Assembly: GCA_963978905.1 (NCBI GenBank)
Contig: OZ022256.1
Location: 8,601,501-8,665,500 of the forward strand
Source: Trichostrongylus colubriformis
Lineage: Eukaryota > Nematoda > Chromadorea > Rhabditida > Trichostrongylidae
Length of the DNA: 64,000 bases
Reading direction: 5' to 3'
Shown one piece after another: positions 666 to 31,949 of the stretch. The notes beneath the pieces were generated by a model. The model did no database searches. It was not told the DNA's origin and saw only the letters and a list, made by a program, of their open reading frames with translations. Every line of letters begins with the position of its first letter. Position 1 is the stretch's first letter. A program made the position numbers and the translations under genes.

Positions 666-1539
666 AGTAAAAATGAAAAATGGGGCAAATAAAATATCTC
701 AAATACAAGCAATTCTAGCGTGGATGTTTATTTGGACTTGCATGAAAATCATTATATTAACAGATTTTCTGGGCGAATTTTTTGACACATCATGGTCAGC
801 ATCCCACCCTTTTCACTACTTCCACTATCTTCCGACCTTCAAACCGGAGTTTTGAACTTTTCTGTATCAAAAAACTTGAAAATAATGCAACTGTGTCCAT
901 TTCCTAGAGCACTAGCCTGCCTCGTAAAATATCGAATCAAAGTATTTTTCACTTAGCTACCTGTTCGTAAATGAATGTTTGCAATAAAGTGGCTATTTTA
1001 GTGAGTTATACACTATCTCCTTTGTCACGTCCTCAACATACGAGAACCAACTGCTGTGTAGCCATAGGCCCAATTTTCGCGCGACCTCTCGCGGTGACTA
1101 TGAGTTGTTCTTGCTCGTGTGCAATCCCTTTGAAGTGTTATGCCTGCAGTGATTATTCATGTATTGGGATCGTTATCATGCTAATTTTACTGTTTTTTTC
1201 CTTGTTATGCTACTATTGTCTATTTATTCACAGGAGTCTGTTTCTACATTGTTCAAAGTATTTCGATTGGTTCTTCTGTTTGAAGTATTTAAAGCGTTAT
1301 GTGTTTAAAGTATTTTTGTATATTTTAGGGGATATCGCAGTGAGGAAGCATCCTACTATGAATGCTGGTTTTACCTAAGTTTAAATGGGGAGGATTCTGT
1401 TTCCTTGTTGAAGCTTAGGCGAAAATATACGCTTGAGAATAATCACCTTAGAGATTCTTAAGTGTGCAGCTCTTCAAAAGATGCCCCATTCATTGCGACA
1501 GCACCATATCCCACTCTATTTGGAGTATTCGAGTATCAT

Positions 1540-2245: not shown

Positions 2246-2446
2246 TTAGTAATACATACAAAGGAGGAAATGCAACTTTGTTCGAACAGAGGAGCCTCGA
2301 ATGCTAAACACCGGTACGGCAACCGCAGCACCGCCTTCAAATTTTCTCCTTTTGAAGAGGTGTATGATGCTTTGTCGAAGATCCGATGAAAGGAGAGCAA
2401 GGGAGAGCGGTGGTATGCTCAGCATAGCGTCATTTATCCAGTAGAA
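2246..2446 (-). CDS. Receptor exon 6 (TM7, C-terminus, stop)
   Basis: The acceptor TATTTTACAG ends at 2447. The exon has 66 codons plus TAA at 2246-2248. It starts FYWINDAMLSIPPLSLALLS and continues with SDLRQSI and a basic tail (FKRRK), matching TM7 and the cytoplasmic end of nematode serpentine receptors. The nearest AATAAA seen on the minus strand is about 415 bp downstream, so the 3' end is unresolved. Confidence 0.8.
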   Translation of the reverse strand, partial: FYWINDAMLSIPPLSLALLSSDLRQSIIHLFKRRKFEGGAAVAVPVFSIRGSSVRTKLHFLLCMYY

Positions 2447-5400
2447 CTGTAAAATACAATTGAGGACGATATTTTCATCAAAAATTATTGAAAACAGTGG
2501 TTTTGCTTATGATCAAGAATTTCATGATCTGCCAAGTACAGCGATCGTTCTTATATCAGCATCGGTTTTTCTTTCGTAACTCCCTGTAATTAAGACTTAT
2601 GCATGCATTTATTGGATCTCACACATGAGTTTTATCTTGCGTGATTTGCAGGATGGAGGTGGTATAGCAAAATCGTCCAGGAGGCTTAGGCCGAGGATCT
2701 ATGCTCTTCTATTCTAAGAGAAACAGCAAACCATGGCGGGACAATGCTCTCGAAACAGAAACTCGCTAGTAAGGGTGTCTTGTAGGAGAAAACACCACGA
2801 CAATTTCTTTCGACTGTCCTGGCCCCGACTAACACAAAGCTCTGCGGCGTGTCATACCGGATAACCCAAATAGTGACTCATGCAGCTTTGACGGGTATAA
2901 TGGTGATCAGCTAAATCCAATCTCATTCAGTCAACTATGTAGTTATGTCGTGAAGTCCGCGGAACTTCCTGCATTATTTTCTATACCAAAACAAAAGTGA
3001 AGGAAACGTACTTGTTTACTCGCCCATAGATACAACACGTCATTATTACCGAGTGAAGCGATTCCTCTAATGAATTGTTGTGAACAGCTCAACATTGTGA
3101 AAATAAACACAAGGAGAGTGTACAATAAAAGGCCCTGAATGCATTTATTGGTGGCATGTGAAGTAATGATAGCGATAGCATCTTTTTTACCTTTTCCTTG
3201 TTTCGATTCGTTGAAAAATCGTTCACTCTGGGCAATCTGTGCCATTCGATAAGCATTCTCGCATTGAGAGCCACGCTTACTATCGAGTAAATTGCACAAA
3301 CTCCAATGTAAGTACACCTGATAAGCTGTAATTTCCCATATCTTAAGATTTTTGGTATGTGACATAACTTATATTAGGTTGATCGAGAAGTTTTGATAGA
3401 GTTGAGATTTTTTCCTTTTTTATTTTATATCTCAGCGAGCAAAGCAAGCTAATCAAGAATATTCTAACAATCGTTGGTTACTACAATGTCCTACCTAACG
3501 GGCAGGTCAGCGGTTCCCTTCTCCCTGAACTGGGAAGATTGGGAGCCAAAGAAGTCACAGACCACTTGTTCAAGGTGGCCATAGTTGACGAATTATTTTT
3601 TCTGGGGGAAAACCTTGAGGCGCCGGAGCAAGTGGTAATTAATGGGGGCAATATCAGGTGAATAGGGTGGGTGTGGAACCATGTCCCAACCTAGCTCCTC
3701 CAATTTTGCACGGATCACTATACCTATGAGCGAGACCCGTGCAAAATTGGAGGAGCTAGGTTGGGACATAGTTCTACATCCACCTTATTCACCTAATATT
3801 GCTCCCCCAGATTACCACTTGTTTTGGGCCCTCGAGGCTTTCCTAGCAAAAGAATAATTCGTCCTATGACCACCTTGAACAAGTGGTCGGTGACTTCTTT
3901 GACTCTCAATCTTCCCAGTTCTGGGAGAAGGGAATCGCTGATCTGCCCTTTAGGTGGGACAATGTTGTAAAGTACGATGGTTATTATACGGTTGATTAGC
4001 TTGCTTTGCTTGCTGAGTTATAAAATAAGACAGAAAAAAATCTCAAAATCTATCAAAACTTTCCGATAACCCTAATATTTTCTCACAGCACGGGAATAGT
4101 GCGCAACAGCAAACTTCCACGAATTATTGTTGTAAGTATTTTTGGCGTACAAATTACAGGCGAGACTAGCTCTACGTAATGAGTCTATCGAGCCTGAAAG
4201 TGAGACGAGATCAAAGTTTTCCCAGGAGCCAGAAATCATTCCCACCAATCCAAAAGTATTTACGAACTTTTGAATTGGTGGGAATAATCTCAATGTAGTT
4301 GGTGCCCTACAGCAGTCCTCACCAGTATAACAGTGCTATCAGCATTACAGCGAAGTGGGATTGCTCAGTCCTTCTCCATGCTGTTCAGTTAGCACTGAAC
4401 GTAAAGAAAAACCGCGTCACATTAGCATGTTGTATTTCTTTTTCCTTCGAGATGAGCTGTGCTTTATACTCCCATTTGCCGTCTTAGAGGCATCGACCTA
4501 GACTATCTAGCAGCAATTTTGCAGAAGCGTAACCCCTTGCAGTTAAGCAATAGGGGTAATGCGGTTATTGAGAAATCCCAAAGAAACCACTCACATGGAA
4601 ACTACAGGCTCAAGAAGACTATTTATGGCGAAATCCTCGTAGAAAAGCGCGCCCCCGATCTGTATAAATGGCGTAACTGTCAACAGCTGACGCCTTGGGA
4701 TGACGCACCCCGCCTCCAAGCGATGTGACTCCTACTGGCCACGGTGGGAGCGGCCGAGGAGATGCGAAAGAGTTGAAGGTATCGTGGCGCGCTTTCTCGT
4801 TTATGCCTGAAACTTACTTCAGAAAGCAGATTTTGCAGTATTTCCGAATATCTCCTTGTCTACGACCTGGTGACATGTCGAAGACTACCCGCCTCTTGGC
4901 GGAAACGCGTCGAGAACTAACGTCCTAGCTCACGGGTCTTCGGCCATTTTCTTCCGTTTTTTTATCGTCGTATTACTAGGCATTTCGACTTTCATATTCT
5001 CTACATTATTCATGATTGACTTGAATTTTCCCTATCGCCTCTACTGAAACACTCCAGTCCACTGACCACATCAACATGCTTTTCGTATCCTTTCAGTATG
5101 GTTGTTCCATCTTCATTATGAATATACACTAATTTTGTTGTTAATACATATACAGAGCAACAAATGCTCACAACATACTGAATCCCTATAGCGGTCCATA
5201 CGTTCCTCCTCATCCAGAGCTGCAAGAAACTAAGCAAATTTCGACTTTCTTTTCCATACCGAGCAAAATCACCATCAATCATTGTATGACCTCCAGTAAC
5301 CCCAAGAACCTTCCAAATTTTCGACAAATCACTGACTGTGTCGTATCTCTGCATGAGACAAACAGCGACATATCGATTGACTGTTATGAACATATTTCCA

Positions 5401-8400
5401 AGCATATGCGCAACGAAGCTCACACCACTTGCAAATGCCAAACATAACACGATGTATTGGAACTGTTCACCCAGACCCAATTCACGATTCAGTCGCAGAA
5501 GGACATTCGAGAGAAGCGAAGTTACGTCAGCTGTGCCTGAACAAAAACAAAAACCATCGCATAACAAGGTTCAGTGCTAGGAAGGTGTTGTGTACGCAGT
5601 GCTGTGTGGACTGCTTTATTGAGTTCGGAGACGGCAGGACAATGACTGAACCTTACTCCATTCTGGAGGCTTATATAACCGACTTGTTTTGAAAACAACA
5701 TTTGATACACATGTGATAGTGGAGGGATACAACACCTCCCTTTTTTTTTTTTAACAAACAACAACAAGTCTTATTGATCACATGGTATCACGCTGACGAT
5801 ACGTCTTCCGGTGTGGATCTATTTGAAGTTGTTCTGGAGGTCTCCGCATGCGTGTCGATCTTCGTGGTTCATTCCTGATGGTTGGATGTGTTGCTTGTTC
5901 ATCGGCCTCCTCTGAAGCTTGGAGAGCAGCTGATGATTGCCGCTGTGGGTGGAAAGTTTCCATGATTGCATCCGTGTCTTGGACTTGCACCTTTGTGTCA
6001 TCGTGGTAACGCAGCCGAAGTTGATTGGCGTGTCTGATCCATGTTGTATTTCCGAGAAGAACTTTGTAGAGTACTCGTCCTATCCGTCTGAGTACCTTTC
6101 CGTTGCACCATTTTGACTGATTTCCTTCGTACTGGCGTACCCAAACTGGATCTCCTGGATTGAATGTGCGTTTTCTGGCGCCGTACTGCTTGTTGAACTG
6201 CGATTCCATTGATGTGTTTGGTCTGGATTTTCTCTGTGGGGTTGGCTTAAGTAGAGAAAGATCGATCCTCAGTTTTCTACCGATGAAAAGTTCAGCTGGA
6301 GAGCTTCCCTTCAGTGTCGGGCACGGGGTTGACCTATATGTCAGGAGAAAATTCTGCAAATTTTCGGACATTGTTCCTTCTCCTTTGAGCTTCGACATGG
6401 TCCTTTTGAAAGTGTCGACGAATCTTTCCGCCTGCCCATTGGATTGTGGGTGATAGGGTGGTGAGAAGAGATGCTGGATACCGTGACTGGTGCAGAAAAT
6501 TTCGAACTGGGACGAAGCGAATTGGGTTCCATTGTCGGTGACAAGGGTTTCTGGCATCCCATATCTGGCGAATGTCTGTTGTAGTAGAGCAATTGTTGTT
6601 TCCGTCGTCGTGCGGTTTGTACTGAATATTTCTGGCCATTTCGAAAAGGCATCCACAATCACTAGGAAGTAGGTTCCTTCGAAGGGTCCGGCGAAATCGA
6701 CATGAATACGAGTCCAGGGTTTGTCTGGTTGGGACCATGAAGCGAGTGTGGTTTTGACTGGGAGTTTTGCGACAGTCGAGCATTTTGTGCAGTGGTGCAC
6801 AATATCTTCGATTTCTTTATCAATTCCTGGCCAGTAAGCATAGCTGCGAGCTAAAGCCTTCATTCGAACGATTCCAGGATGTCCACTGTGTAGTTGTGTG
6901 AGGACTCGTGACCGGAGAGATGCAGGAATTACCACTCTATCTGAGCATAAGAGGCATCCGTTCAGGGTTGAAAGGGCATAACGGCGATTGTAGAAGCTCA
7001 GCAAGTCGGGATCTGTTATTTCTGTGGGCCAAACTCCTTTGATATACCGAGTGACTTGCTGTAGGAGACGATCCTTAACTGTTGATTCCTTGATTTCATT
7101 AGCTGTGACTGGTAAGGCTTGAACTGAATTGGCGAATGTGTGTGCGATGTCTTCTTCAACAGAAATAGAGGCGATTACTTGATCTTCCTCTTGGACAGAC
7201 TGGGTTGCGATTAGACGTGAAAGAGCATCTGCTTGACCAAAGCTTGTGGTTGATCGGTATTGAATGCTGAAGTCGTAGGCTAGGAGTGTTGTTGCCCATC
7301 TTTGTAGTCGATTTGCAGTGTAGATGGGGATACCCTTCTTGGAGCCAAATATAGCCAGTAGAGGCTTATGATCCGTCAGCAGGATGAATTTCCTTCCGAG
7401 AAGCATTCTGTGGAACTTTTGCACAGCGAATACAAGCGCAAGCCCTTCTTTTTCAATTTGGCTGTAGTTTTTCTCTGCTGGTAGTAGTGAGCGAGAAGCA
7501 TGGGCAATTGCTTTCTCGGATCCATCTTTGTAGCGATGTGAGATAACTGCGCCCAAACCATAATTCGAAGCGTCGGCGGCCACGATGATATCCTGAGTTG
7601 GATCGTAATGGGCGAGCAGAAGATCAGATTCGAGGATTGCCTTTGCTCTATTGAAACTGTCTTCGCAGTCCTTGGTCCACTTGAATTTCGCATTCTTCGC
7701 TAGCAAAACGTCGAGTGGAGCACGGAGCCTCCTCATTTCTTTGACAAAATTGCCATAGTAGCTCAGAAGTCCTAGGAAAGATCGTAATTGCGACAGGTTC
7801 TTCGGAGCTGGCATCTTTTTGATGGCATCTATTTTCTTCGGATCGGGGCGTCGGCCGTGCTTGTCGATGATATAACCAAGATAAGTAACAGAAGGAGTTG
7901 CGAATTGACACTTCTCCAAGCGGACGTGGAGGCCACTTTCTGCAATTCGATTGAAGAAAGCGTTGAGGTTTCTCTGGTGTTCCTCCAGGGTGCGTCCTAC
8001 GATGATAACATCGTCCAGGTAGGCTATGACACCTTGTAAGCCACTTAGAGTAGTATCCATTATCTGTTGAAATATGGCTGGAGCGGATTTGACGCCAAAA
8101 GGTAGTCTGTTGTATTGATATAGTCCTCGGTGGGTGTTGATTGTTAGCAACTGTTTTGACTGTTGATCCATCTCAATTTGGAGGTAGGCGTCCGCAAAGT
8201 CGATGTGGGAAAAATACTGTCCACCCGTGAGTGTCGCGAAGATGTCTTCAGGCAGTGGTAGCGGGTACTGATGCAAATCTAAAGCATCGTTTAGCCCTGT
8301 GGAGAAATCGGCGCAGATTCGTAGTGATCCATTTGCCTTTTTCACAATAACTATTGGCGCAGCCCATTCAGAGTAGTTGGTTTTTGAAATCACTCCGTTT

Positions 8401-11400
8401 GCTTCGAGCCTATCAAGCTCTTTTTCCACTGCTGTAAGAGCTGCATATGGTACCGGTCGTTTTGGGCGGAATATTGGTTTAGTGCCAGGCTTGAGGTGAA
8501 GAGTAGCCTTTGAATGCTTGTATAGCCCAAGGCCACTATTGAAAACTCCTGGGTGAGTTTCTTGTAGTTTTCTAGCTATCTTGTCGCCGTTTAAGCACAA
8601 GCTATTGAAGTTGATGGCGGCGGATGCTTCTGGATCCGTGCGGGGAAGAGAATCCATAATGCTGTATATTCCCATCTTGGAAATCCATTCTGAGCCTAGT
8701 AGATTTGGCTGAGTGCGTCCGACGTAAAATACACCTTGAGCTGATGCAGAATTGAAACTGTAAGTGCATTTACGCTGACCAAGAAAGTGAATGCGATCTC
8801 CTGATGCACTGTGGGCTATCAGTGTTGCAGGCTGTAGCTGAGGCCTGCCCATAGATTTCCATGTCGATTCATTGATGATTGTGATGTCCGCTGCGGTGTC
8901 TACTTGGAAATGGATAGGCTTGTCATCCACCAGGATTGTTGCGAATCGCCGATATGAGCAATCTATCTTTGACACTTTGAAGACTGCATCGGATCGCGTG
9001 ATTGGCTTCGTTGAACGTTGTTTGGTGCATTTTGCTTGAATTCTGGATTGACAAAATCCATCTTTGTGACCTATCTTCTGACATTCGGAGCACTTGTGTC
9101 GTCTATATGAGCAGTGTCGCACGAAATGCATTGCTCCGCAAAGCCAGCATGGAGAGGGAGGGGGTTTCGATGAGAAACTCCAACGGTATTCGTTCTTGTT
9201 GTGGGCAAAACGAGAGGGTTTACTCGATTGAGGTTGCTTGTGTTGGCGTCTTGGGTTGGAATGATTGACTGCATGCACATTGGCTCTTCCGTCCTCGACC
9301 ATTTTGGTGTCCTGCTTCAGGTTTACGAGGCGCTTGCACTCTTCTGTAAGTGACTGAACCGTGCATTTGGGGTTGGCTTCGATCTTATCGAGTAATTTTA
9401 GCCGTATAAAAGCATCATCACTAGATTGTAAACCACTCACGAAGATGAGGCACTTGAACTGGTTGTCATCACATTCGGATAGCTTGAATTTTTCACATTC
9501 ACGATTGACACGTCCGGCGTAGGTGATGAAGTCGTCACTTGGATCCTTGGCTAGCTTCATGCAGGCGTAGCGACGGCTGAACAGCGACTGCTGTGGTCCG
9601 AACAGATCCGTTAGAGTGGAGACAGCTTCATCGAATTTGATATCCCTTGGTGTCTTCGGCAAAATGTAGTTCGCATACTTCTCATAGGCTGCAGGATTTA
9701 ACTTGTGCAGGAGAAGGCGAACCCGTGCTGGTTCATCGAGTACTTGCGCTTCCACTGTGAAGGTGTCCAGGTGCCTGCGGTACCATGCCTCGAAAGTGAG
9801 GTCCGCATCGGGATCATATGTGAACTCAGTGATTCGTCCTGCGAGCATGTCGAAGGTTCTGCTTGGATCGGCTGTTGCTGAGGTTCCTTGCTGTGCCTGC
9901 TTCAGTGCTTCCGTTAATGCCACCAAGAGCTGCTGGAACTGCTGCTCGGTCCTGGTAGTCATCCTGATCGCCACTGTTGTGTACGCAGTGCTGTGTGGAC
10001 TGCTTTATTGAGTTCGGAGACGGCAGGACAATGACTGAACCTTACTCCATTCTGGAGGCTTATATAACCGACTTGTTTTGAAAACAACATTTGATACACA
10101 TGTGATAGTGGAGGGATACAACAGAAGGTTGAAACGATCTGTCCAAGGAATTGATGGTGGGTCTCTTTATAAATTGTTCTAACACGTGCAGTTGCACTTG
10201 ACTTGCCGTGACAAATGGGTCATCTCCCGTTCACAAATCAGCAACTAGAGATTAAGAGAACGACGATGAGCTAAGCGAGCACTATGCTGTATGACGTTAG
10301 GCGCTGCCCCTTGCGGTCAGTTTGCCAATGTGGCGTATGGGTTTGAGCTGCCACCTAACGCGGACCATCGACGCATGTTTGGCGTAGGACAAGCCGTCGA
10401 CATCACCGAACCTTCAACATTTTCGTAACTGATGGTTACTACATAAACAGCCCTGTAGCTACACATTACAAATTACTGAGAAGTAGCTTCTATCACAACC
10501 TCGAATTAATTGTAATACAACCTCCCTCGAAGTGAACAAGCGGTGTTCCTCATGGTTCGAATTGTAGAAAAGACGAAAAAAGTAGAAGAAACAGAAAATT
10601 AGTCAAAACATACCCTTGATTCATCAGTCGAAGAGGAACAGGACCTCAAAAGGTTGTCCATTAAGGATCGAAAGACGTCTATCGTTTACGAAAATTTGAG
10701 GGTTTTGCGATGTGAACGGTTATTCGTCGCAGAAGATGCGTCGAAGCTACGGGCTATGCACCCCATTTGCATATTGACCGCAAGTGCTGGCGCCTTACGA
10801 TCGTCTCACACTCCATACATAACCACGCTCCACACTGCTCCTCCCGAATTTCTGTTCTAATGGCGCACATCTTTGCCGTAGCAAGGGTCAAGCCTCCGTC
10901 GAGGATCAAAAGTCAAGGGTCTCCGCTGAGGGTCAATAGTGTAGAGGGGAGATGTGGTAAGACTGACCAACTAGGTTTAAATCCAAAACTAATATTTAGC
11001 TTAATCTTCACCTAAAAATCTCGAAAACGTACAAAATGCGCTCCCCAACAAACAGGAATCAAAGTAAGGCATAACTTTTTGAAGACAAGTGCTCAAAACG
11101 ATATCGTGGAGAGGATAGTGCATGGGCATTGCAAAAGATAAACAGAGTCAAAGGGCACGCTGTTCCTGTGGTCCCCTCCGTACTGTGGACTGTGAACAAG
11201 GTGTCAAGCTTCCGCAACCAAACACGAATAACATATGCTGTGGTGAAAAGTCTATACCTGATACCTTGTTCATAGCTCATAATTCCAAGACGACCACGGG
11301 AATAGTGTACCCTTCACCATGACGAGTTGTCGATGGAACCCTCATGCATGGGCTTTCCACAACGAAGCCGGCTAGCTTTAATCCCCCGTCGGTTGATGCA

Positions 11401-13480
11401 CTGACACCAAAAACACGTGCAGAGGGGCCTTCCACATTATTCGATTGGGTCATGGAGCGCGTTATCTATCCATAGGTTACAGCATGGATGAAAAATTGAG
11501 AAGCTATGGGATGAAAACGAGAGATTAAATGATTTGGGCTTTTTCTTTATCCTACTATGATTGCAAGGCCGTAAACTGGTGCTAGCGAACCATTATGCGG
11601 ACCTAAAAAGAGTTTGCATTAATCTAAAATGTGAATGGAATCCTCATACACGGTGCATTCCACAGCGGGGCCGATCAATGTTGGTCATCGAAGCTCTGAA
11701 AGCAAAGGATGTGCACTGGAGGCCTTGCCGACACAATAAATCATTTTTTCCAAAAGATCATGGGAGGATCTCGCCACTTCGACAAAAAAAATTCTTCAAA
11801 AAATTTTTGCGAAATAACTTCCTCGTTTTTGAAGACGTGGTGTAGTGTAACGAGTCCTTAGAAATCGAGAACCCCATAGATTCCGTCCGCACTCACAACA
11901 TTAAGTTTGTAGGATGTCACGACCATTTGGTGAGACACTTCGAAAATTTACCAAATTTTCCTCGACTGGATTTACATATACAGAACTAAGCAGCCATTGA
12001 GGAAACCAGATGGCCTGTAGATTGAGCTAGGGGAGTTATTCCACATTACTTTGAACAGTCTACATTACATTGAAAGGTTGAGTTTTAGTAAAGTTGCAGG
12101 ATTTGAAGTGCTCACATTTACTACGGAGAGGATGCTGATCGCCGCGTCGCTACTGTAGCAGTAGTGGCATGGCTTCTATCTAATTTCCAACCTTCTTGAT
12201 CCTTCTTTTTTCATTCATTATCCATGCCGCATACGTTGGCTTGACTTTTACCCTTTTCCTCTGCCATCAAAAGACGAGTATATGACCCATGGTTGGCGAC
12301 GCTGTCGTTCCGGAATATAAGTATTGAATTTTGCTAGGATCTTATTTTTCTTATTTTGTTACGAGTTTGGTCTCAGGTACCCGTAGGCTCCTAATTTCCG
12401 TGACTTCACCGTGGCCGCGGAAGTTGACGATGTGAAAATTCAACGGCGATGTCACTGCAAAGCTCAGGTTTAGGGAGAATTTCGGAGAGTTCAAAATCGG
12501 CACGTTTCTCATTCGAGGTGAGAAGCTTCCTGAACGACATAATACGTTCCATTCGTCTACTGGTCAACTGTGTTGTGTTTCCTACACAACTCAATTCAGA
12601 GTCAGTTAGATACGTGTGAGAAGACCAAGTCTCCATACTACTAGGTTCTAAGAAAAGTTCTGGTTGGTATTGCGTATCTACAAGATAAAGCCATATTTGA
12701 AAACGCAACTTAAGGATTGTGCTCCTCAGACAGAAAAACGCTGTTCTCTCAGAATAACATAATGTCTTTGAATTGTTGGGGCAATTTTATTGCAAAATGA
12801 AAAGGAAACTTATTTGCCGACTTCATTCTTATTCGATTCGGCAACTACGTACAAAGTGAGCATTGCGATGGAAGACGGTAGCGCGTAGGATTAAGCGCTC
12901 TTTACGTGGTTCTCTATGTTGAAATGAGAACGAGTTGCTCGAAAAATCTAATGATCAAGACGCTTCATGCAACTGTGAAAACATCAAGGAGTGATGGATT
13001 TTCACATTCGAAGGTATTATCTAAAAACAAAGATCATCCCCATGCAGGTGTGGGTGACCATCTTACCATCTTACTAGCTTGGATTGATCCTAACTTGGCA
13101 AAACAAGCTGAAAGCCCTGACGCAATATTAACACGCGATTGCACACTTCAATGAATTCCCAACATCTGTATTAGTTGCAGACTGAGGCACTATCTCGTTC
13201 GCCATACTCGACAGAGCTAGCACTAACACACCCATATTTTCGAAAATATACAGATGCTTGCTTCTTCATATTTATTTTACTAGTATTTTTCATTCTCAAT
13301 CTCTACTTCGACAACCACAAAAGTCGATTAATATAACAAATGCATACCTGTTGCCACAAACATAACGAAGAATGCACTTTTGAATACCTTCATTTTAGAT
13401 GTTGCTATAACAAATAGAAGAAATATATAGAAAGAGGCCAGTAAAAGTTCTATCACAGTCTGCAATATGTTGACTGCCAT
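2246..13480 (-). CDS. Nematode serpentine chemoreceptor (srv-like 7TM GPCR), six exons
   Basis: Coding exons on the minus strand are 13348-13480, 5337-5536, 5067-5219, 3191-3325, 3012-3134 and 2246-2446, giving about 314 aa. All introns are GT-AG and keep the frame: intron 1 is phase 1 and the others are phase 0. Exon 1 carries TM1. Exon 2 carries TM2-TM3 and ends TM3 with NRYVAVC near residue 98. Exon 3 opens with LWMRRNVW and carries TM4. Exon 4 carries TM5 (YIGVCAIYSIVSVALN). Exon 5 carries TM6 (GLLLYTLLVFIFTML). Exon 6 carries TM7 with WIND, PP and an S-DLR motif before a basic tail. This layout fits the nematode Srv-type receptor families, probably plasma-membrane chemosensory receptors of sensory neurons. 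The class (srv rather than a sister class) is inferred. No stop or frameshift breaks the exons. Introns 2 and 3 use GTCAGT donors, which are less common. Introns 1 and 3 contain transposons. Confidence 0.85.
3012..3134 (-). CDS. Receptor exon 5 (TM6)
   Basis: The exon follows a 56-nt intron with acceptor TGCATTCAG and ends at donor GTACGT. The 41 codons start GLLLYTLLVFIFTMLSCSQQ, a TM6 segment, and continue through a loop ending LWASKQ. Phase is 0 on both sides. Confidence 0.8.
3191..3325 (-). CDS. Receptor exon 4 (TM5)
   Basis: The acceptor AAATTACAG ends at 3326 and the donor GTAAAA starts at 3190, phase 0. The 45 codons contain TYIGVCAIYSIVSVALNARM, a TM5-like segment ending in the LN-R pattern seen in Srv-type receptors. 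The frame differs from the longest ORF at this place, so an ORF scan would miss it. Confidence 0.8.
3374..4075. mobile_element. Fold-back mariner derivative in receptor intron 3
   Basis: Starts TTAGGTTGATCGAGAAG and ends in the degenerate inverse, with TA on both sides (3372-3373 and 4076-4077). Both halves carry the same 3' part of a mariner transposase in opposite orientations. The right half reads KLEELGWDIVLHPPYSP, then APPDYHLF, and after a stop and frameshift DFFDSQ. The left half is its inverted copy. It has no first or second catalytic Asp, so it is non-autonomous, and its RNA could fold into a long hairpin. Confidence 0.85.
4925..5000 (-). repeat. R1-associated segment in receptor intron 3
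   Basis: On the minus strand ATATGAAAGTCGAAATGCCTAGTAA, then AACGGAAGAAAATGGCC-AAGACCC. It matches the pattern at 43310-43490 and, more loosely, at 30640-30810. Confidence 0.5.
5067..5219 (-). CDS. Receptor exon 3 (TM4 and following loop)
   Basis: The acceptor TTTCTTGCAG ends at 5220, after a 117-nt intron. The exon has 51 codons, beginning LWMRRNVW and including IQYVVSICCSVYVLTTKLVY as TM4, then a loop with GTTILKGYEKH. The donor GTCAGT starts at 5066, phase 0. Confidence 0.8.
5337..5536 (-). CDS. Receptor exon 2 (TM2-TM3)
   Basis: The acceptor is TTTTTGTTCAG ending at 5537 and the donor is GTCAGT starting at 5336. The exon has 2 + 66x3 bases and contains the GNMFITVNRYVAVC segment typical of TM3 and its cytoplasmic end in nematode serpentine receptors. 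The ORF runs open past the donor, but splicing there gives YDT-LWMRRN, the expected cytoplasmic loop. Read-through would insert a polar stretch with no family resemblance. Confidence 0.85.
5586..5734 (-). repeat. 3' LTR of the Ty3/gypsy element
   Basis: Matches 9975-10123 base for base by eye. On the minus strand it contains a TATA-like GGTTATATAAGCC (5668-5680) and the poly(A) signal AATAAA (5615-5620). Its inner-gene edge lies 49 bp from the 3' splice site of receptor exon 2. Confidence 0.95.
5735..5752 (-). other. Polypurine tract of the retrotransposon
   Basis: On the minus strand a run of A followed by GGGAGG directly abuts the 3' LTR, as expected for the plus-strand primer of an LTR retrotransposon. 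Confidence 0.8.
5778..9962 (-). CDS. Ty3/gypsy Gag-Pol polyprotein
   Basis: Single ORF of 1394 aa from the ATG at 9962, beginning MTTRTEQ. A GTG 12 bp upstream is also in frame but is not needed. Order by approximate residue: Gag (1-265), two zinc knuckles CWLCGAMHFVRHC and CSECQKIGHKDGFC (270-305), aspartic protease with VDTAAD (about 355), reverse transcriptase with AYLDDV (about 648), RNase H (VAADASNYGLG near 795 and TDHKP near 865), integrase with an H-H-C-C zinc site (1025-1061), and D1089, D1143 and E1179 with D35E spacing. An SH3-like end follows (WVRQYEG). It encodes retrotransposon replication and integration. Gag and Pol share one frame with no frameshift. No chromodomain was seen. 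DTAA in place of DTG or DSG in the protease is unusual. A Mag-like clade is possible but not shown. Confidence 0.95.
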   Translation of the reverse strand: MTTRTEQQFQQLLVALTEALKQAQQGTSATADPSRTFDMLAGRITEFTYDPDADLTFEAWYRRHLDTFTVEAQVLDEPARVRLLLHKLNPAAYEKYANYILPKTPRDIKFDEAVSTLTDLFGPQQSLFSRRYACMKLAKDPSDDFITYAGRVNRECEKFKLSECDDNQFKCLIFVSGLQSSDDAFIRLKLLDKIEANPKCTVQSLTEECKRLVNLKQDTKMVEDGRANVHAVNHSNPRRQHKQPQSSKPSRFAHNKNEYRWSFSSKPPPSPCWLCGAMHFVRHCSYRRHKCSECQKIGHKDGFCQSRIQAKCTKQRSTKPITRSDAVFKVSKIDCSYRRFATILVDDKPIHFQVDTAADITIINESTWKSMGRPQLQPATLIAHSASGDRIHFLGQRKCTYSFNSASAQGVFYVGRTQPNLLGSEWISKMGIYSIMDSLPRTDPEASAAINFNSLCLNGDKIARKLQETHPGVFNSGLGLYKHSKATLHLKPGTKPIFRPKRPVPYAALTAVEKELDRLEANGVISKTNYSEWAAPIVIVKKANGSLRICADFSTGLNDALDLHQYPLPLPEDIFATLTGGQYFSHIDFADAYLQIEMDQQSKQLLTINTHRGLYQYNRLPFGVKSAPAIFQQIMDTTLSGLQGVIAYLDDVIIVGRTLEEHQRNLNAFFNRIAESGLHVRLEKCQFATPSVTYLGYIIDKHGRRPDPKKIDAIKKMPAPKNLSQLRSFLGLLSYYGNFVKEMRRLRAPLDVLLAKNAKFKWTKDCEDSFNRAKAILESDLLLAHYDPTQDIIVAADASNYGLGAVISHRYKDGSEKAIAHASRSLLPAEKNYSQIEKEGLALVFAVQKFHRMLLGRKFILLTDHKPLLAIFGSKKGIPIYTANRLQRWATTLLAYDFSIQYRSTTSFGQADALSRLIATQSVQEEDQVIASISVEEDIAHTFANSVQALPVTANEIKESTVKDRLLQQVTRYIKGVWPTEITDPDLLSFYNRRYALSTLNGCLLCSDRVVIPASLRSRVLTQLHSGHPGIVRMKALARSYAYWPGIDKEIEDIVHHCTKCSTVAKLPVKTTLASWSQPDKPWTRIHVDFAGPFEGTYFLVIVDAFSKWPEIFSTNRTTTETTIALLQQTFARYGMPETLVTDNGTQFASSQFEIFCTSHGIQHLFSPPYHPQSNGQAERFVDTFKRTMSKLKGEGTMSENLQNFLLTYRSTPCPTLKGSSPAELFIGRKLRIDLSLLKPTPQRKSRPNTSMESQFNKQYGARKRTFNPGDPVWVRQYEGNQSKWCNGKVLRRIGRVLYKVLLGNTTWIRHANQLRLRYHDDTKVQVQDTDAIMETFHPQRQSSAALQASEEADEQATHPTIRNEPRRSTRMRRPPEQLQIDPHRKTYRQRDTM
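9960..9973 (-). other. Putative primer-binding site
   Basis: TGGCGATCAGGATG begins two bases inside the 5' LTR. TGG is the complement of a tRNA CCA end. The primer tRNA was not identified. The ATG used for Gag lies at the end of this motif. Confidence 0.45.
9975..10123 (-). repeat. 5' LTR of the Ty3/gypsy element
   Basis: Same 149 bases as the other LTR, with the TATA-like box near 10057-10069 and AATAAA at 10004-10009 on the minus strand. The GAAGG duplication follows at 10124. Confidence 0.95.
10129..13347. other. Remainder of receptor intron 1
   Basis: Host intron sequence outside the retrotransposon. It includes R2 and two diverged similar blocks at about 11330-11440 and 11635-11740 (both with ATGGAA-CCTCAT and TTCCACA). 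No convincing exon was recognised. Without the insertion, intron 1 would be about 3.3 kb. Confidence 0.5.
10283..10450 (+). repeat. Dispersed repeat R2 (copy in receptor intron 1)
   Basis: GACGTTAGGCGCTGCCCCTTG through GAGCTGCCACCTAACGC to TTTTCGTAACT. Similar sequence occurs at 55085-55215 (same strand) and 55540-55620 (opposite strand). Family unknown. Confidence 0.5.
13348..13480 (-). CDS. Receptor exon 1 (start codon and TM1)
   Basis: The ATG is at 13478-13480. A hydrophobic run rich in L, F, I and V follows from about residue 8 to residue 29, then K-M-K-V-F-K-S. The exon ends after FVAT plus one base, at a GTATGC donor (intron starts at 13347). The leftover G joins GC from exon 2 to make a glycine codon, so the reading frame continues exactly into exon 2 despite the 7.8-kb intron. 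An upstream in-frame TTG was rejected as the start because the TTTCAG acceptor lies just before this ATG. Confidence 0.8.
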
Positions 13481-18737: not shown

Positions 18738-20015
18738 TTAGGTTGGTAACTGAGTAATTGCTGATTTTTGTTAGGAAATCAAAGGCCTTTTTTCATAGAA
18801 CTAAATAACTTTATTCTGTAATATATTGCCCGTTTTTATCGATGACCTTTTGCCATCTTTCAGGTAGCATCATAATTTCGCATTCATAAAACTTCTGGTT
18901 TTTATCACTAAAAAACTGAGTCAGGTACGATTTGACCTCATCATCACTACTGAAATTTTTACCACTCAAAGAGTTCTGCAATGATAGAATTAAAAAGTAA
19001 TCTGACGGTCCATGGTAAGAACTATGGTGGATGTGACAAGACATCCCAACCAAGCTCCAGTAATTTTTGCCGAGTGGCCAAAGATGCGTGTGGCCTTGCA
19101 TTGTCATGATGGAATAAAGCACTTTTCCGGTTAATTAATTCGGGTTGCTTTTCTTGAACTGCATTGCTTAATTTTGTTAAATGGGCAATGTAGACATCAG
19201 AATGATCGTTCGGGGATGGTAGGAGTTCAAGGTAGACAATTCTTTCGTAATCCCACCAAACTGACAACAAAACCTTCTTTTGATGAATATCAGCTTTTGC
19301 TCTTCTTTGAGCTGGTTCACCTGGGCGGCTCCACGATCTTTTTCGCTGGACAATATTGTAATCAACCCATTTTTCATCGCCAGTGATCATTGGTTTTAAA
19401 AATGGATAATTTTCATTACGTTCCTCTAGCAAATCGCAGATGTTAATGCGTTGCCTTAGATGCGTTTCCTTCAGTTGGTGAGGAACCCACGTATCCAGTT
19501 TTGACACTTACCCAATATGTTTTAAATGGTTTCCAATGCAAGTATGTGATACCTGTAGCTTCTCTGCAATCTCACGTGTTGTACTGTGACGATCCGAATC
19601 AAGTATTGCCTTGATTAGGTCGTTGTCAACTTCAACTAGACGACCAGAGCAATACTCATCTTTGAGAGAAAGATCACTAGATCGAAATTTGGCAAACCAA
19701 TTTTGGCACTGTCGTCCTTTCGAGGCTTCGGCACCATAAACAGCACATAATTTGTGTGCTTGCGATGCGCTTTTCCCTTTACGTAAATAATAAAGCAAAA
19801 TATGACAAAAATGAATGTTTTGATTCTCCATTTTTCAGCACACGTCAAACGAAAATAACGCAACCGATCAAGAAAGTTCCTTTACTGATCGATAACAGGA
19901 TTGCCTACTATTAGATAACAGTATGTGTTTAACATTTGGGATACGGCAGTAAAGTTAAAAATTCAACTAAAGCCATCTGTGAGTGAAATCAGCAATAACT
20001 TAGTTGCCAACCTTA
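18738..20015 (-). mobile_element. Full-length mariner element (Hsmar1/cecropia-like)
   Basis: Inverted ends TTAGGTTGGTAACT and AGTTGCCAACCTTA, TA on both sides (18736-18737 and 20016-20017), 1278 bp. That is the usual size of an intact mariner. The minus strand carries the transposase relic described separately. The terminal sequence and protein resemble the Hsmar1/cecropia subfamily, to which the hookworm element bandit belongs. This assignment is from memory of the family. Confidence 0.93.
18811..19831 (-). pseudogene. Mariner transposase, broken by one stop and one frameshift
   Basis: Starts MENQNIHF at 19831. The N-terminal helix-turn-helix region includes WFAKFRSSDLSLKDE and VSHTCIGNHLKHIG. 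An in-frame TAA at 19508-19510 interrupts just before KLDTWVPHQL. The catalytic region follows: TGDEKWV (first Asp), HHDNARPH (second Asp) and, after a frameshift near 19030, GPSDYFL (third Asp, D34D-type). The C-terminus is WQKVIDKNGQYITE. About 340 aa in total, the normal mariner length. Only two visible lesions make it a recent copy. It cannot make a full transposase as read. Confidence 0.9.
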
Positions 20016-23457: not shown

Positions 23458-24356
23458 TTAGGTTGATTCATAATAAATCGGACAAATAGTAGTGATGATT
23501 TCTAGAGATCATAACTCAGTAACGAATTAACGAAAATGGACGCGGGAGGTACCGTTGGAATGAGTATGAAAAGCTCTTCAAAGTACCGCAAAATAATCAC
23601 TCCAAAGTAAATTCATTCCGCCACAATGCCGCACGATTTCAAGCGGTCCAGAGACCACATCCGCAACGTCATACTATTTATATCGCTATCTGGCCAGGAA
23701 CCCGCGGATATCGGCAGACGTCTGATAGAAGTTCACAAGGAGCATGCCCCTGGCAGAAGTACACTGTAGTTGTAGCATTCGAAGTTTGCGTCAGGCGACT
23801 ATTCCATCGAAGACGAAAACCGCGGTTGGTGGAGCGTACACGGCGTAGAGTACTGGGAGCTGCTCGATGAAGGTACCACAGTATCCGCCGACGTCTACGT
23901 TCGTCAATTACGAGAATTGAAGGCCAATGTCCAAAGTTCGCTACGGCGGCGGTCACATGTCTACTTCCAGCACGACAACGTGTCTACTTCCACAGACCGC
24001 ACTTCGCAAGATCGACCAAGGCCGAGCTGCTGTCGTACAGTTGGACCGTACTTCTATACCCACCGTACTCCCCAGACGTGGCCCCTTCAGATTTCCACCT
24101 TTTCTCCCACAGCCAACGCCACCTGGACGGCCAAGACTTCAAAACTCGCGACGAGGTCAAGGCGGCACTCGGCAACTTCTTCGAGCTCCAGCTTCCGGCC
24201 TTCTGGAGCAAGGGCATCCATGATCTGCCTATACCGTGGCAGAAGGTCATCGATAAAGATGGAGTATATTTCAAGTGAATCCCTGTTGTCGTAAAAAAGT
24301 TGTACGACAATGATTAAAATTGGTCAATTTGTCCGATTTATTATGAATCAACCTAA
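23458..24356 (+). mobile_element. Internally deleted mariner
   Basis: 29-bp inverted ends beginning TTAGGTTGATTCATAATAAA, TA on both sides (23456-23457 and 24357-24358), 899 bp instead of about 1.3 kb. It encodes a fragmented transposase on the plus strand. The terminal repeats differ from those of the other mariners here, so it is a separate lineage. Confidence 0.92.
23612..24278 (+). pseudogene. Mariner transposase fragments
   Basis: Pieces in shifting frames: FASGDYSIEDENRGWW, then VHGVEYWELLDEGTTVSADV, RQLRELKA, QHDNV at the second-Asp position, and APSDFHLF at the third. The C-terminus is intact (WQKVIDKDGVYFK). The segment with the first catalytic Asp is missing and at least two frameshifts are present, so it is inactive. 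Confidence 0.85.
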
Positions 24357-31055: not shown

Positions 31056-31949
31056 TTAGGTTGTTCCAAAAGTCTTGTAGTATTTTTTTCGATTATCACT
31101 TTTTATTTTTTTTTCGTCCAACAAATAATAATTAGGCAACATCGTATTGACCATTGTTATCGGCAACCCTCTGCCCCCTCATAGGTAAATCGTTGATTCC
31201 CTCCTCCCAAAACTCTGGGTTCTGAGAATCGAAGAAGTCAGCGATCGCCTTAACAAGCATGTCATAATTAGCGAATTTTCTCTTGGTCAGGAAGGATTCA
31301 AGAGGATGGGTAAGATGGTGGTCAGAAGAGGCAATGTCTGGAGAGCATGGCCGGTGGGGCAGCACATCCCAGCCGAGCTCCAATAACTTGGCCTGGGAAC
31401 TTTTCACGAAATGGGGGCGAAATGGGAGCGGGCGTCGTCATGAAGAAGGATGATAGCGGACCCTTTTCGGCACTTTTCTCGAACAGCGACGGCGAGCTGC
31501 TGGAGCTGGTGGGTGCATACGGCAGCGATGACTGTCTCGCCTTGTACCAGCACCTCGCGGAAAAGCATTCCTTCCGCGTCCCAGAACCAGCACAGTCCCA
31601 AGCGTGGTTTGTCCTTCATGTCAATCTCGCCGTTGCTGAAGCTGATGAACCAGCGGCGCACGGTCACGTAGCTCACACATCCCTTGCCCAATGCAGCGCT
31701 GATGGAGTGGCAAGCTTCCGTCGTTTTGGTGCCGCAAGACCGCTCATAATAGATGACAACGCGAATTGGGTGGGTATCCACAACGGGCATTGTAGCTCTC
31801 TCCACGGAATCTGGTGGGTCAATATATATTTTCCTAGAAAGCTTAGGGAACGTTCTACCATATTCCTGAACCGCCTGGACCTGCCTCGAAGTGAACAAGA
31901 GTTACTGATTTTTTTGGAAAAATACTACAAGACTTTTGGAACAACCTAA
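31056..31949 (-). mobile_element. Internally deleted mariner, copy 1
   Basis: Inverted ends TTAGGTTGTTCCAAAAGTCT continuing TGTAGTATTTTT, 894 bp. TA precedes the left end; the right flank is TG, so one target copy has mutated. Its closest relative in the window is 59269-60092, which has the same ends and the same internal deletion. Confidence 0.92.
31132..31898 (-). pseudogene. Mariner transposase lacking the first catalytic region
   Basis: The first ORF (31404-31898) starts FTSRQVQAVQEYGRTF and includes VRRWFISFSNGEIDMKDKPR. It then jumps directly to FREVLVQGETVIAAV and LLHDDARSH (second Asp). The second ORF (31132-31407), in another frame, holds LLELGWDVLPHRPCSPD, SSDHHL (third Asp) and the tail. 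The TGDEKW region is absent. The deletion joins the HTH domain to the middle of the catalytic domain. Confidence 0.88.

What the first reader, a model, noticed from the sequence alone, without database searches (positions are those of the whole stretch)
5537..10128. Fresh sense-oriented LTR retrotransposon 49 bp from a receptor splice site
The element has identical LTRs, a perfect GAAGG duplication and an intact ORF, so it inserted recently. It lies in the gene's orientation inside intron 1, leaving only 49 bp before exon 2. Each LTR carries AATAAA and a TATA-like box in the sense direction. It could therefore end receptor transcripts in intron 1 or start new ones from exon 2 onward.
Basis: partly seen in the sequence, partly recalled or inferred. 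Interest (0 to 1): 0.75.

Follow-up and report, generated by a model that had tools for sequence, protein, structure and literature searches.

The report
Young retrotransposon in worm receptor intron
A complete, fairly young copy of a common kind of jumping gene sits, facing the same way as the gene, in the first intron of an intact-looking nematode smell-type receptor gene; the facts are as reported, any effect on the receptor is untested, and such insertions are ordinary.

Summary
On the minus strand lies a complete 4,538-bp Ty3-type LTR retrotransposon: two identical 149-bp LTRs, GAAGG target duplications and one intact Gag-Pol ORF with motifs in Ty3 order. The host gene holds up: I modelled a six-exon, 314-aa Srv chemoreceptor without stop or frameshift. 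Exon 1 (13480-13348) joins exon 2 (from 5536) in phase, so the element lies in intron 1, sense-oriented, 49 bp before exon 2.

TATA and AATAAA are standard LTR parts. The 49 bp need not be damaging: another modelled intron of this gene is 56 nt in all. "Fresh" is loosely bounded: identical 149-bp LTRs alone allow millions of generations; LTRs and ORF together about a million, under assumed rates. Most likely it is a selfish insertion that lowers receptor mRNA partly, through cleavage at the 5' LTR, or not at all. RNA started in the 3' LTR would lack the first 88 of 314 residues and, in a nematode, could be SL1 trans-spliced at exon 2, a testable twist. Host species, empty sites, other copies and RNA could not be examined; the whole-genome search did not complete. 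Ordinary; low interest.

The parts
10124..10128 (.). target-site duplication GAAGG, copy at the 5' LTR
5581..5585 (.). target-site duplication GAAGG, copy at the 3' LTR
9975..10123 (-). 5' LTR, 149 bp; TATATAA from 10066, Inr-like TCAGTC from 10038, AATAAA from 10009
5586..5734 (-). 3' LTR, identical to the 5' LTR; TATATAA from 5677, predicted start of transcription 5647 (inferred), AATAAA from 5620
9962..9973 (-). putative primer-binding site TGGCGATCAGGA, one base after the LTR, touching the start codon (tRNA not identified)
   Evidence: sequence; inference
5735..5752 (-). putative polypurine tract A12GGGAGG directly before the 3' LTR
   Evidence: sequence; inference
5778..9962 (-). single intact Gag-Pol ORF, 1,394 codons plus stop
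9594..9851 (-). Gag domain DUF7083 (PF23309)
   Evidence: E 2.1e-24
7866..8291 (-). reverse transcriptase RVT_1, with YLDD
7275..7679 (-). RNase H domains (PF17919 and PF17917 together)
6447..6719 (-). integrase core (PF00665); H2C2 zinc finger upstream; D..D(35)E spacing
13348..13480 (-). Srv receptor exon 1 (start codon 13480, donor G|GTATGC)
   Evidence: tblastn by 3 of 4 relatives
5537..13347 (-). intron 1, 7,811 bp with the element, 3,268 bp without element and one duplication
5337..5536 (-). Srv receptor exon 2
   Evidence: 4 of 4 relatives
5067..5219 (-). Srv receptor exon 3
   Evidence: same tblastn stretches as exon 2
3191..3325 (-). Srv receptor exon 4
   Evidence: 2 of 4 relatives clearly (E 7e-12, 6e-7), a third at E 0.58
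3012..3134 (-). Srv receptor exon 5
   Evidence: one relative, P0122, E 6e-8
2246..2446 (-). Srv receptor exon 6 to stop TAA
   Evidence: one relative, P0122, E 1e-6

Best explanation
A complete, probably autonomous Ty3-type LTR retrotransposon inserted by ordinary integrase action (5-bp duplication) into intron 1 of an intact-looking Srv chemoreceptor gene of a strongylid-like nematode, in the gene's orientation, and shows no decay since. It was not selected for any role there. Its most likely effect on the gene is a partial loss: some pre-mRNAs are cleaved and polyadenylated at the AATAAA of the 5' LTR (for a transcript from the receptor promoter this signal is far from the cap, so it is not hidden as it would be in the element's own RNA), giving an RNA with exon 1 and part of intron 1 that could code for 50 aa, while the rest splice exon 1 to exon 2 normally because the native 49 nt hold the 3' splice site. 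Shown: structure, orientation, gene model by homology. Inferred: polyadenylation, splicing, partial loss.
For: LTRs, duplication, ORF and motifs. LTR ends fit TGTTRNR...YNYAACA and the Inr-like site fits TCAKTY (against PMC3601003, passages). Gene model: six exons, 314 aa, Pfam Srv over profile positions 6-282 of 283, E 1.6e-18. Unspliced exon 1 reads 50 aa to a stop. The native 49 nt end in TTTTTGTTTTTGTTCAG, and intron 4 of the model is only 56 nt. [quoted passage not shown] the element's orientation was not in the passages seen). Endogenous retroviruses and LTRs in human introns show an antisense bias, read there as selection against sense ones (PMC1794541, start of the text in the listing).
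Against: No RNA was seen. PMC1794541 (passages) stresses a splice acceptor in the element as the step that starts disruption, with polyadenylation completing it; here the element has 3 sense acceptor-like sites with one mismatch and none perfect, no more than 300 mononucleotide shuffles give (mean 3.3, 194 of 300 at least as many), against 9 in the 3,268 bp of native intron. Two native sense AATAAA (13276, 12791) and one ATTAAA (11382) would be met before the LTR. No clear GT-rich stretch, listed as a conserved LTR feature in PMC3601003, follows the LTR AATAAA. After setting these against my reading I lowered its confidence from 0.5 to 0.45 and raised the silent passenger from 0.3 to 0.35.
Confidence: 0.45

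Rival explanations
1. Silent passenger: the whole element is spliced out with intron 1 and receptor expression is unchanged.
For: The last 49 nt before exon 2 are native and hold the acceptor; the element has no excess of acceptor-like sites over shuffles. In C. elegans 1,131 of 2,246 classified genic TE insertions (50.4%; genic there includes promoters and UTRs) lie in introns, and the authors read most insertions as not harmful, often in families with redundancy (PMC5850821, passages). A soybean copia in intron 1 of the Rhg1 alpha-SNAP gene splices out, although that one is antisense (PMC6712407, passages).
Against: Sense orientation with an AATAAA in each LTR; sense LTR elements are the under-represented class in human introns (PMC1794541, listing).
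Confidence: 0.35
2. LTR-driven trans-spliced receptor RNA: the 3' LTR promoter starts RNA at about 5647; with no consensus 5' splice site of its own the 111-nt leader acts as an outron and SL1 is joined to exon 2, giving a capped RNA that can code at best for residues 89-314.
For: TATATAA at 58 and the A of an Inr-like TCAGTC at 88 of the LTR, then 111 nt to exon 2; 0 GTRAGT donors in the leader. A synthetic outron (named OU141/OU145; its length was not stated in the passages) makes a reporter an SL1 substrate in C. elegans (PMC5737717, passages). The spliced mRNA of Cer1, a Ty3-type element of C. elegans, was found with and without SL1 (PMC3315495, passages).
Against: Out-of-frame ATGs at 30 and 91 nt into exon 2, the second opening 70 codons across the first in-frame ATG at 131, make even a truncated receptor unlikely. 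The 8-kb unspliced Cer1 RNA was not trans-spliced (PMC3315495). The start site is only predicted, and 9 GT dinucleotides, one GTACAC, lie in the leader. LTR activity unknown.
Confidence: 0.1
3. Silencing: small RNAs and heterochromatin against the element spread over the receptor and turn it down, whatever the LTR signals do.
For: Nematodes silence LTR elements through small RNAs (general knowledge; only the listing of PMC13195028 was seen). H3K9me2 on an intronic element bears on receptor output in RPP7, there by promoting full-length RNA (PMC7529245).
Against: Nothing in the sequence tests it, and the RPP7 case runs the other way.
Confidence: 0.07
4. Assembly artefact: a repeat copy was placed here wrongly.
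For: Identical LTRs of a possible multi-copy family can mislead assemblers; no reads were available.
Against: A perfect 5-bp duplication flanks exactly the LTR ends, and removing the element and one copy leaves a continuous intron.
Confidence: 0.03

Closest known systems
Ty3-type LTR retrotransposons, many annotated 'K02A2.6-like' and with DUF7083 Gag, in nematodes, flatworms and insects
   Same: Same domains, often as one ORF of about 1,400 codons; RT-RNase H 82% identical to an Ancylostoma ceylanicum protein over 363 residues, 72-75% to the next four (two unnamed, Gnathostoma, Trichuris muris)
   Different: No near-identical protein among the 240 listed. Over at least 80% of each piece the best identities among 120 relatives are Gag 48%, integrase 71%, C-terminus 44%
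Cer1 of C. elegans inserted in plg-1
   Same: Ty3-type element with one long Gag-Pol ORF and identical LTRs in a host gene (PMC3315495 and PMC10309623, passages)
   Different: Cer1 inactivates plg-1; here the element lies in an intron and no effect is shown; Cer1 makes an RNA of about 8 kb, this element is 4.5 kb
COPIA-R7 in intron 1 of the Arabidopsis receptor gene RPP7
   Same: LTR element in intron 1 of a receptor gene, with the 5' LTR as polyadenylation site there and as candidate here (PMC7529245, abstract and passages)
   Different: Plant, copia element, and a regulatory use through EDM2 and H3K9me2; none of this is shown here
white-apricot (copia in a white intron of Drosophila), recalled
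   Same: Intronic LTR element that ends transcripts in its LTR (recalled; 0 of the 12 papers listed, of 107 found, hold the name)
   Different: A mutant phenotype is known there; not here

Membership tests
Ty3-type (Metaviridae) LTR retrotransposon | Direct LTRs with TG...CA ends | tested here: met
   149 bp, identical, TGTTGTA...CACAACA
Ty3-type (Metaviridae) LTR retrotransposon | Domain order protease - RT - RNase H - integrase | tested here: met
   DTAAD 355, YLDD 648, DAS 797, H2C2 1025, integrase D..D(35)E ending at 1179; Pfam RT, RNase H, integrase above cut-off, protease models below theirs
Ty3-type (Metaviridae) LTR retrotransposon | Short target-site duplication | tested here: met
   GAAGG on both sides
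Ty3-type (Metaviridae) LTR retrotransposon | tRNA primer site after the 5' LTR and polypurine tract before the 3' LTR | tested here: inconclusive
   TGGCGATCAGGA and A12GGGAGG present; no tRNA gene in the window and no host tRNA set to match
Mag lineage within Ty3-type elements | RT clusters with Mag reference sequences | not tested
   No Mag reference was among the rows. The tree joins the element to A. ceylanicum P0009 (SH-aLRT 100) and, at 80 and 82, to Trichuris, Gnathostoma and unnamed rows. Mag is my recalled label for K02A2.6-like elements; PMC3601003 gives its Mag A clade a clear AATAAA but no conserved TATA box, and this LTR has a TATATAA
Active (mobile) element | New insertions or polymorphism | not testable with these tools
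   Host genome search unanswered; intact ORF and identical LTRs only make it possible
Srv chemoreceptor (PF10323) | Full-length match to the Srv 7TM profile above its cut-off | tested here: met
   67.6 bits against cut-off 21, profile 6-282 of 283; Srg also matches at 38.8 bits against 22
Intronic LTR that terminates host transcripts (as RPP7/COPIA-R7) | RNA 3' ends in the 5' LTR | not testable with these tools
   Sense AATAAA at 10009 present; no RNA
SL1 outron | SL1 joined to the 3' splice site | not testable with these tools
   Predicted 111-nt outron only

The most novel reading that the evidence does not exclude
The 3' LTR turns the exon 2 acceptor of the receptor, normally a cis-splice site, into an SL1 trans-splice site, so that a retrotransposon promoter makes spliced-leader-capped, N-truncated chemoreceptor RNAs: a way for an intronic LTR to capture a downstream gene that only trans-splicing animals offer.
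Probability: 0.1. Interest if true: 0.4.

Novelty: new member of a known kind. Interest (0 to 1): 0.2.

Why it matters
By itself it is one more young intronic insertion in a kind of gene in which losses are common: C. elegans has about 1,300 genes and 400 pseudogenes in its 19 largest chemoreceptor families (PMC2576165, abstract passage). If polymorphic, it would offer a natural empty/occupied pair for asking how nematode genes cope with a sense LTR in an intron, and whether an LTR promoter plus a lone 3' splice site recruits SL1.

Tried and rejected
Rejected: (a) the worry that 49 bp is too little room: intron 4 of the model is 56 nt in all. (b) Exon trapping as the main route: sense acceptor-like sites in the element are at the level of mononucleotide shuffles and none is perfect. 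(c) Receptor already a pseudogene: six exons join in phase without stop; exons 5 and 6 rest on one relative. (d) A second exon 1 or exon 2 in the window to which the element could belong: tblastn with 4 Srv relatives gave one strong place for exon 1 (3 of 4) and for exon 2 (4 of 4). (e) Horizontal transfer to explain relatives in Trichuris and Gnathostoma: the forks that join them to this element have SH-aLRT 80 and 82, and several branches are long; not claimed.

Led nowhere: relatives in viral contigs, 3 pattern matches, 0 confirmed. Papers on Mag with K02A2.6: 0 of the 20 listed, of 23 found, hold the name K02A2.6. Papers holding both 'outron' and 'retrotransposon': 4 in all; passages of one, PMC5832876, report SL inside 32 Schistosoma genes, 6 of them transposable or retrotransposable elements, possibly an assembly chimera; the other three were seen as listings only. 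One search (LTR retrotransposon with spliced leader terms) listed 10 of 169; only PMC3315495 of these was opened for its passages on SL1. Host species not identified: the Srv search gave 4 hits, Cooperia 52%, Trichostrongylus 44%, Haemonchus 40% and 45%, so a strongylid is likely.
Full report
What is there. On the minus strand of the window lies a complete LTR retrotransposon. The LTRs are 5586-5734 and 9975-10123, 149 of 149 positions identical, bounded by GAAGG at 5581-5585 and 10124-10128. A 25-nt LTR-end pattern with up to three mismatches finds 2 places in the window, these two. One ORF runs from ATG 9962 to 5778, 1,394 codons. Pfam finds DUF7083 (Gag), reverse transcriptase, RNase H, H2C2 and integrase core above cut-off, and aspartic protease models below theirs. 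Motifs come in the order of Ty3-type elements: two zinc knuckles, DTAAD, YLDD, RNase H DAS, H2C2 finger, integrase D..D(35)E. A putative primer site and a polypurine tract sit where they should, but the tRNA is unidentified.

The receptor. The exon 2 frame matched Pfam Srv. With four relatives from Cooperia, Trichostrongylus and Haemonchus I located the exons by tblastn and chose splice sites by reading. Exon 1 was hit by 3 of 4 relatives, exons 2-3 by 4 of 4, exon 4 clearly by 2 of 4, exons 5 and 6 by one, P0122. The model has exons 13480-13348, 5536-5337, 5219-5067, 3325-3191, 3134-3012 and 2446-2246, all joins in phase, 314 aa, no stop. The joined protein matches Srv over profile 6-282 of 283 (E 1.6e-18) and more weakly Srg. 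Two donors read GTCAGT, which is unusual, so introns 2 and 3 deserve RNA proof. Intron 1 is 7,811 bp, of which 4,543 are element plus one duplication. The element is therefore in intron 1 and in the gene's orientation, as claimed.

How young. Identical 149-bp LTRs alone give a 95% upper bound of 0.010 changes per site. Adding the absence of stops and frameshifts in the ORF, with assumed indel rates of 0.1 to 0.3 of the substitution rate and four fifths of indels shifting the frame, gives 0.0037 to 0.0020. At a recalled C. elegans rate of 2.7e-9 per generation these are 3.7 million, and 1.35 to 0.75 million generations. So 'not old' is supported; 'fresh' in the sense of polymorphic is not shown. 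The calculation assumes neutral decay after insertion.

What the LTR signals mean. The LTR has TATATAA at 58, TCAGTC at 86 and AATAAA at 115. PMC3601003 (passages) lists ends TGTTRNR...YNYAACA, AATAAA, a GT-rich stretch after it, a less conserved TATA box and an optional TCAKTY Inr as parts of Ty3-type LTRs. This LTR fits all but the GT-rich stretch, which is not clear here. They are thus evidence of an intact LTR, not of an effect on the gene. Intron 1 has 4 sense AATAAA, 2 of them native.

Effect on the gene. Shown: nothing at the RNA level. Expected: splicing can still work, since the 49 nt before exon 2 are native and end in a T-rich acceptor, and a whole intron of this model is 56 nt. Cleavage at the 5' LTR is plausible because the receptor's transcript reaches that AATAAA far from its cap, unlike the element's own RNA (inference). 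Unspliced exon 1 would give 50 aa. The closest described case is RPP7 with COPIA-R7 (PMC7529245, abstract and passages). LTR elements in human introns show an antisense bias (PMC1794541, listing), but the same paper stresses an acceptor within the element as the start of disruption (passages), and this element has only 3 one-mismatch acceptor-like sites, as shuffles do. In C. elegans half of the classified genic TE insertions are intronic and most insertions are read as harmless (PMC5850821, passages). A small Drosophila table also lists sense intronic LTR elements (PMC10745035, passages). I therefore favour a partial loss, with no effect close behind.

A nematode twist. RNA started in the 3' LTR at about 5647 would meet the exon 2 acceptor after 111 nt with no consensus donor before it, which fits the description of an outron (PMC9303266, passages). 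A synthetic outron suffices for SL1 trans-splicing of a reporter in C. elegans (PMC5737717, passages), and the spliced Cer1 mRNA carries SL1 in part, the unspliced 8-kb RNA not (PMC3315495, passages). Its first in-frame ATG is codon 89 of 314, so it lacks the residues of TM1-TM2 (inference; no membrane prediction was run), and out-of-frame ATGs at 30 and 91 nt precede that ATG at 131.

Relatives. RT-RNase H is closest to A. ceylanicum P0009 (82% over 363 residues; sister in the tree, SH-aLRT 100). Shorter proteins from H. contortus (P0178, 82% over 67% of the query) and A. duodenale (P0194, 80% over 65%) are as near. Of the 240 proteins listed none is near-identical. Each search scored only about 8,000 candidates and listed 120, so absence of closer copies is not proven. 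Relatives are widespread in nematodes, flatworms and insects, many under the label K02A2.6-like.

Verdict. Observation confirmed, interpretation partly supported, a new member of a known kind, low interest unless RNA shows an effect.

Noticed in passing
window 3371-4078: Long fold-back element in receptor intron 3: arms 3402-3584/3864-4046 (86%), 3587-3716/3734-3863 (82%), 3371-3403/4046-4078 (85%); by eye, from recalled mariner motifs, it carries transposase-like remnants in the frames.
   Followed up: partly
window 10295-10384 and 10728-10799: Diverged inverted repeats (72-75%) in intron 1 beside the insertion, perhaps an old MITE.
   Followed up: no
window 19025-19507 (-), 23776-24291 (+), 31407-31901 (-): Mos1/mariner-like transposase ORFs (Transposase_1, one with HTH_48): 3 of 10 ORFs tested; the other 7 matched no Pfam family.
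   Followed up: partly
window 792-872 (+): Fragment like the last Srv exon (48% to P0122, E 0.001) on the opposite strand, perhaps part of a second Srv gene or pseudogene.
   Followed up: no
window 5336 and 5066 (-): Two donors of the receptor model read GTCAGT, unusual for a nematode (recalled); could be real or a sign of a different exon border.
   Followed up: no
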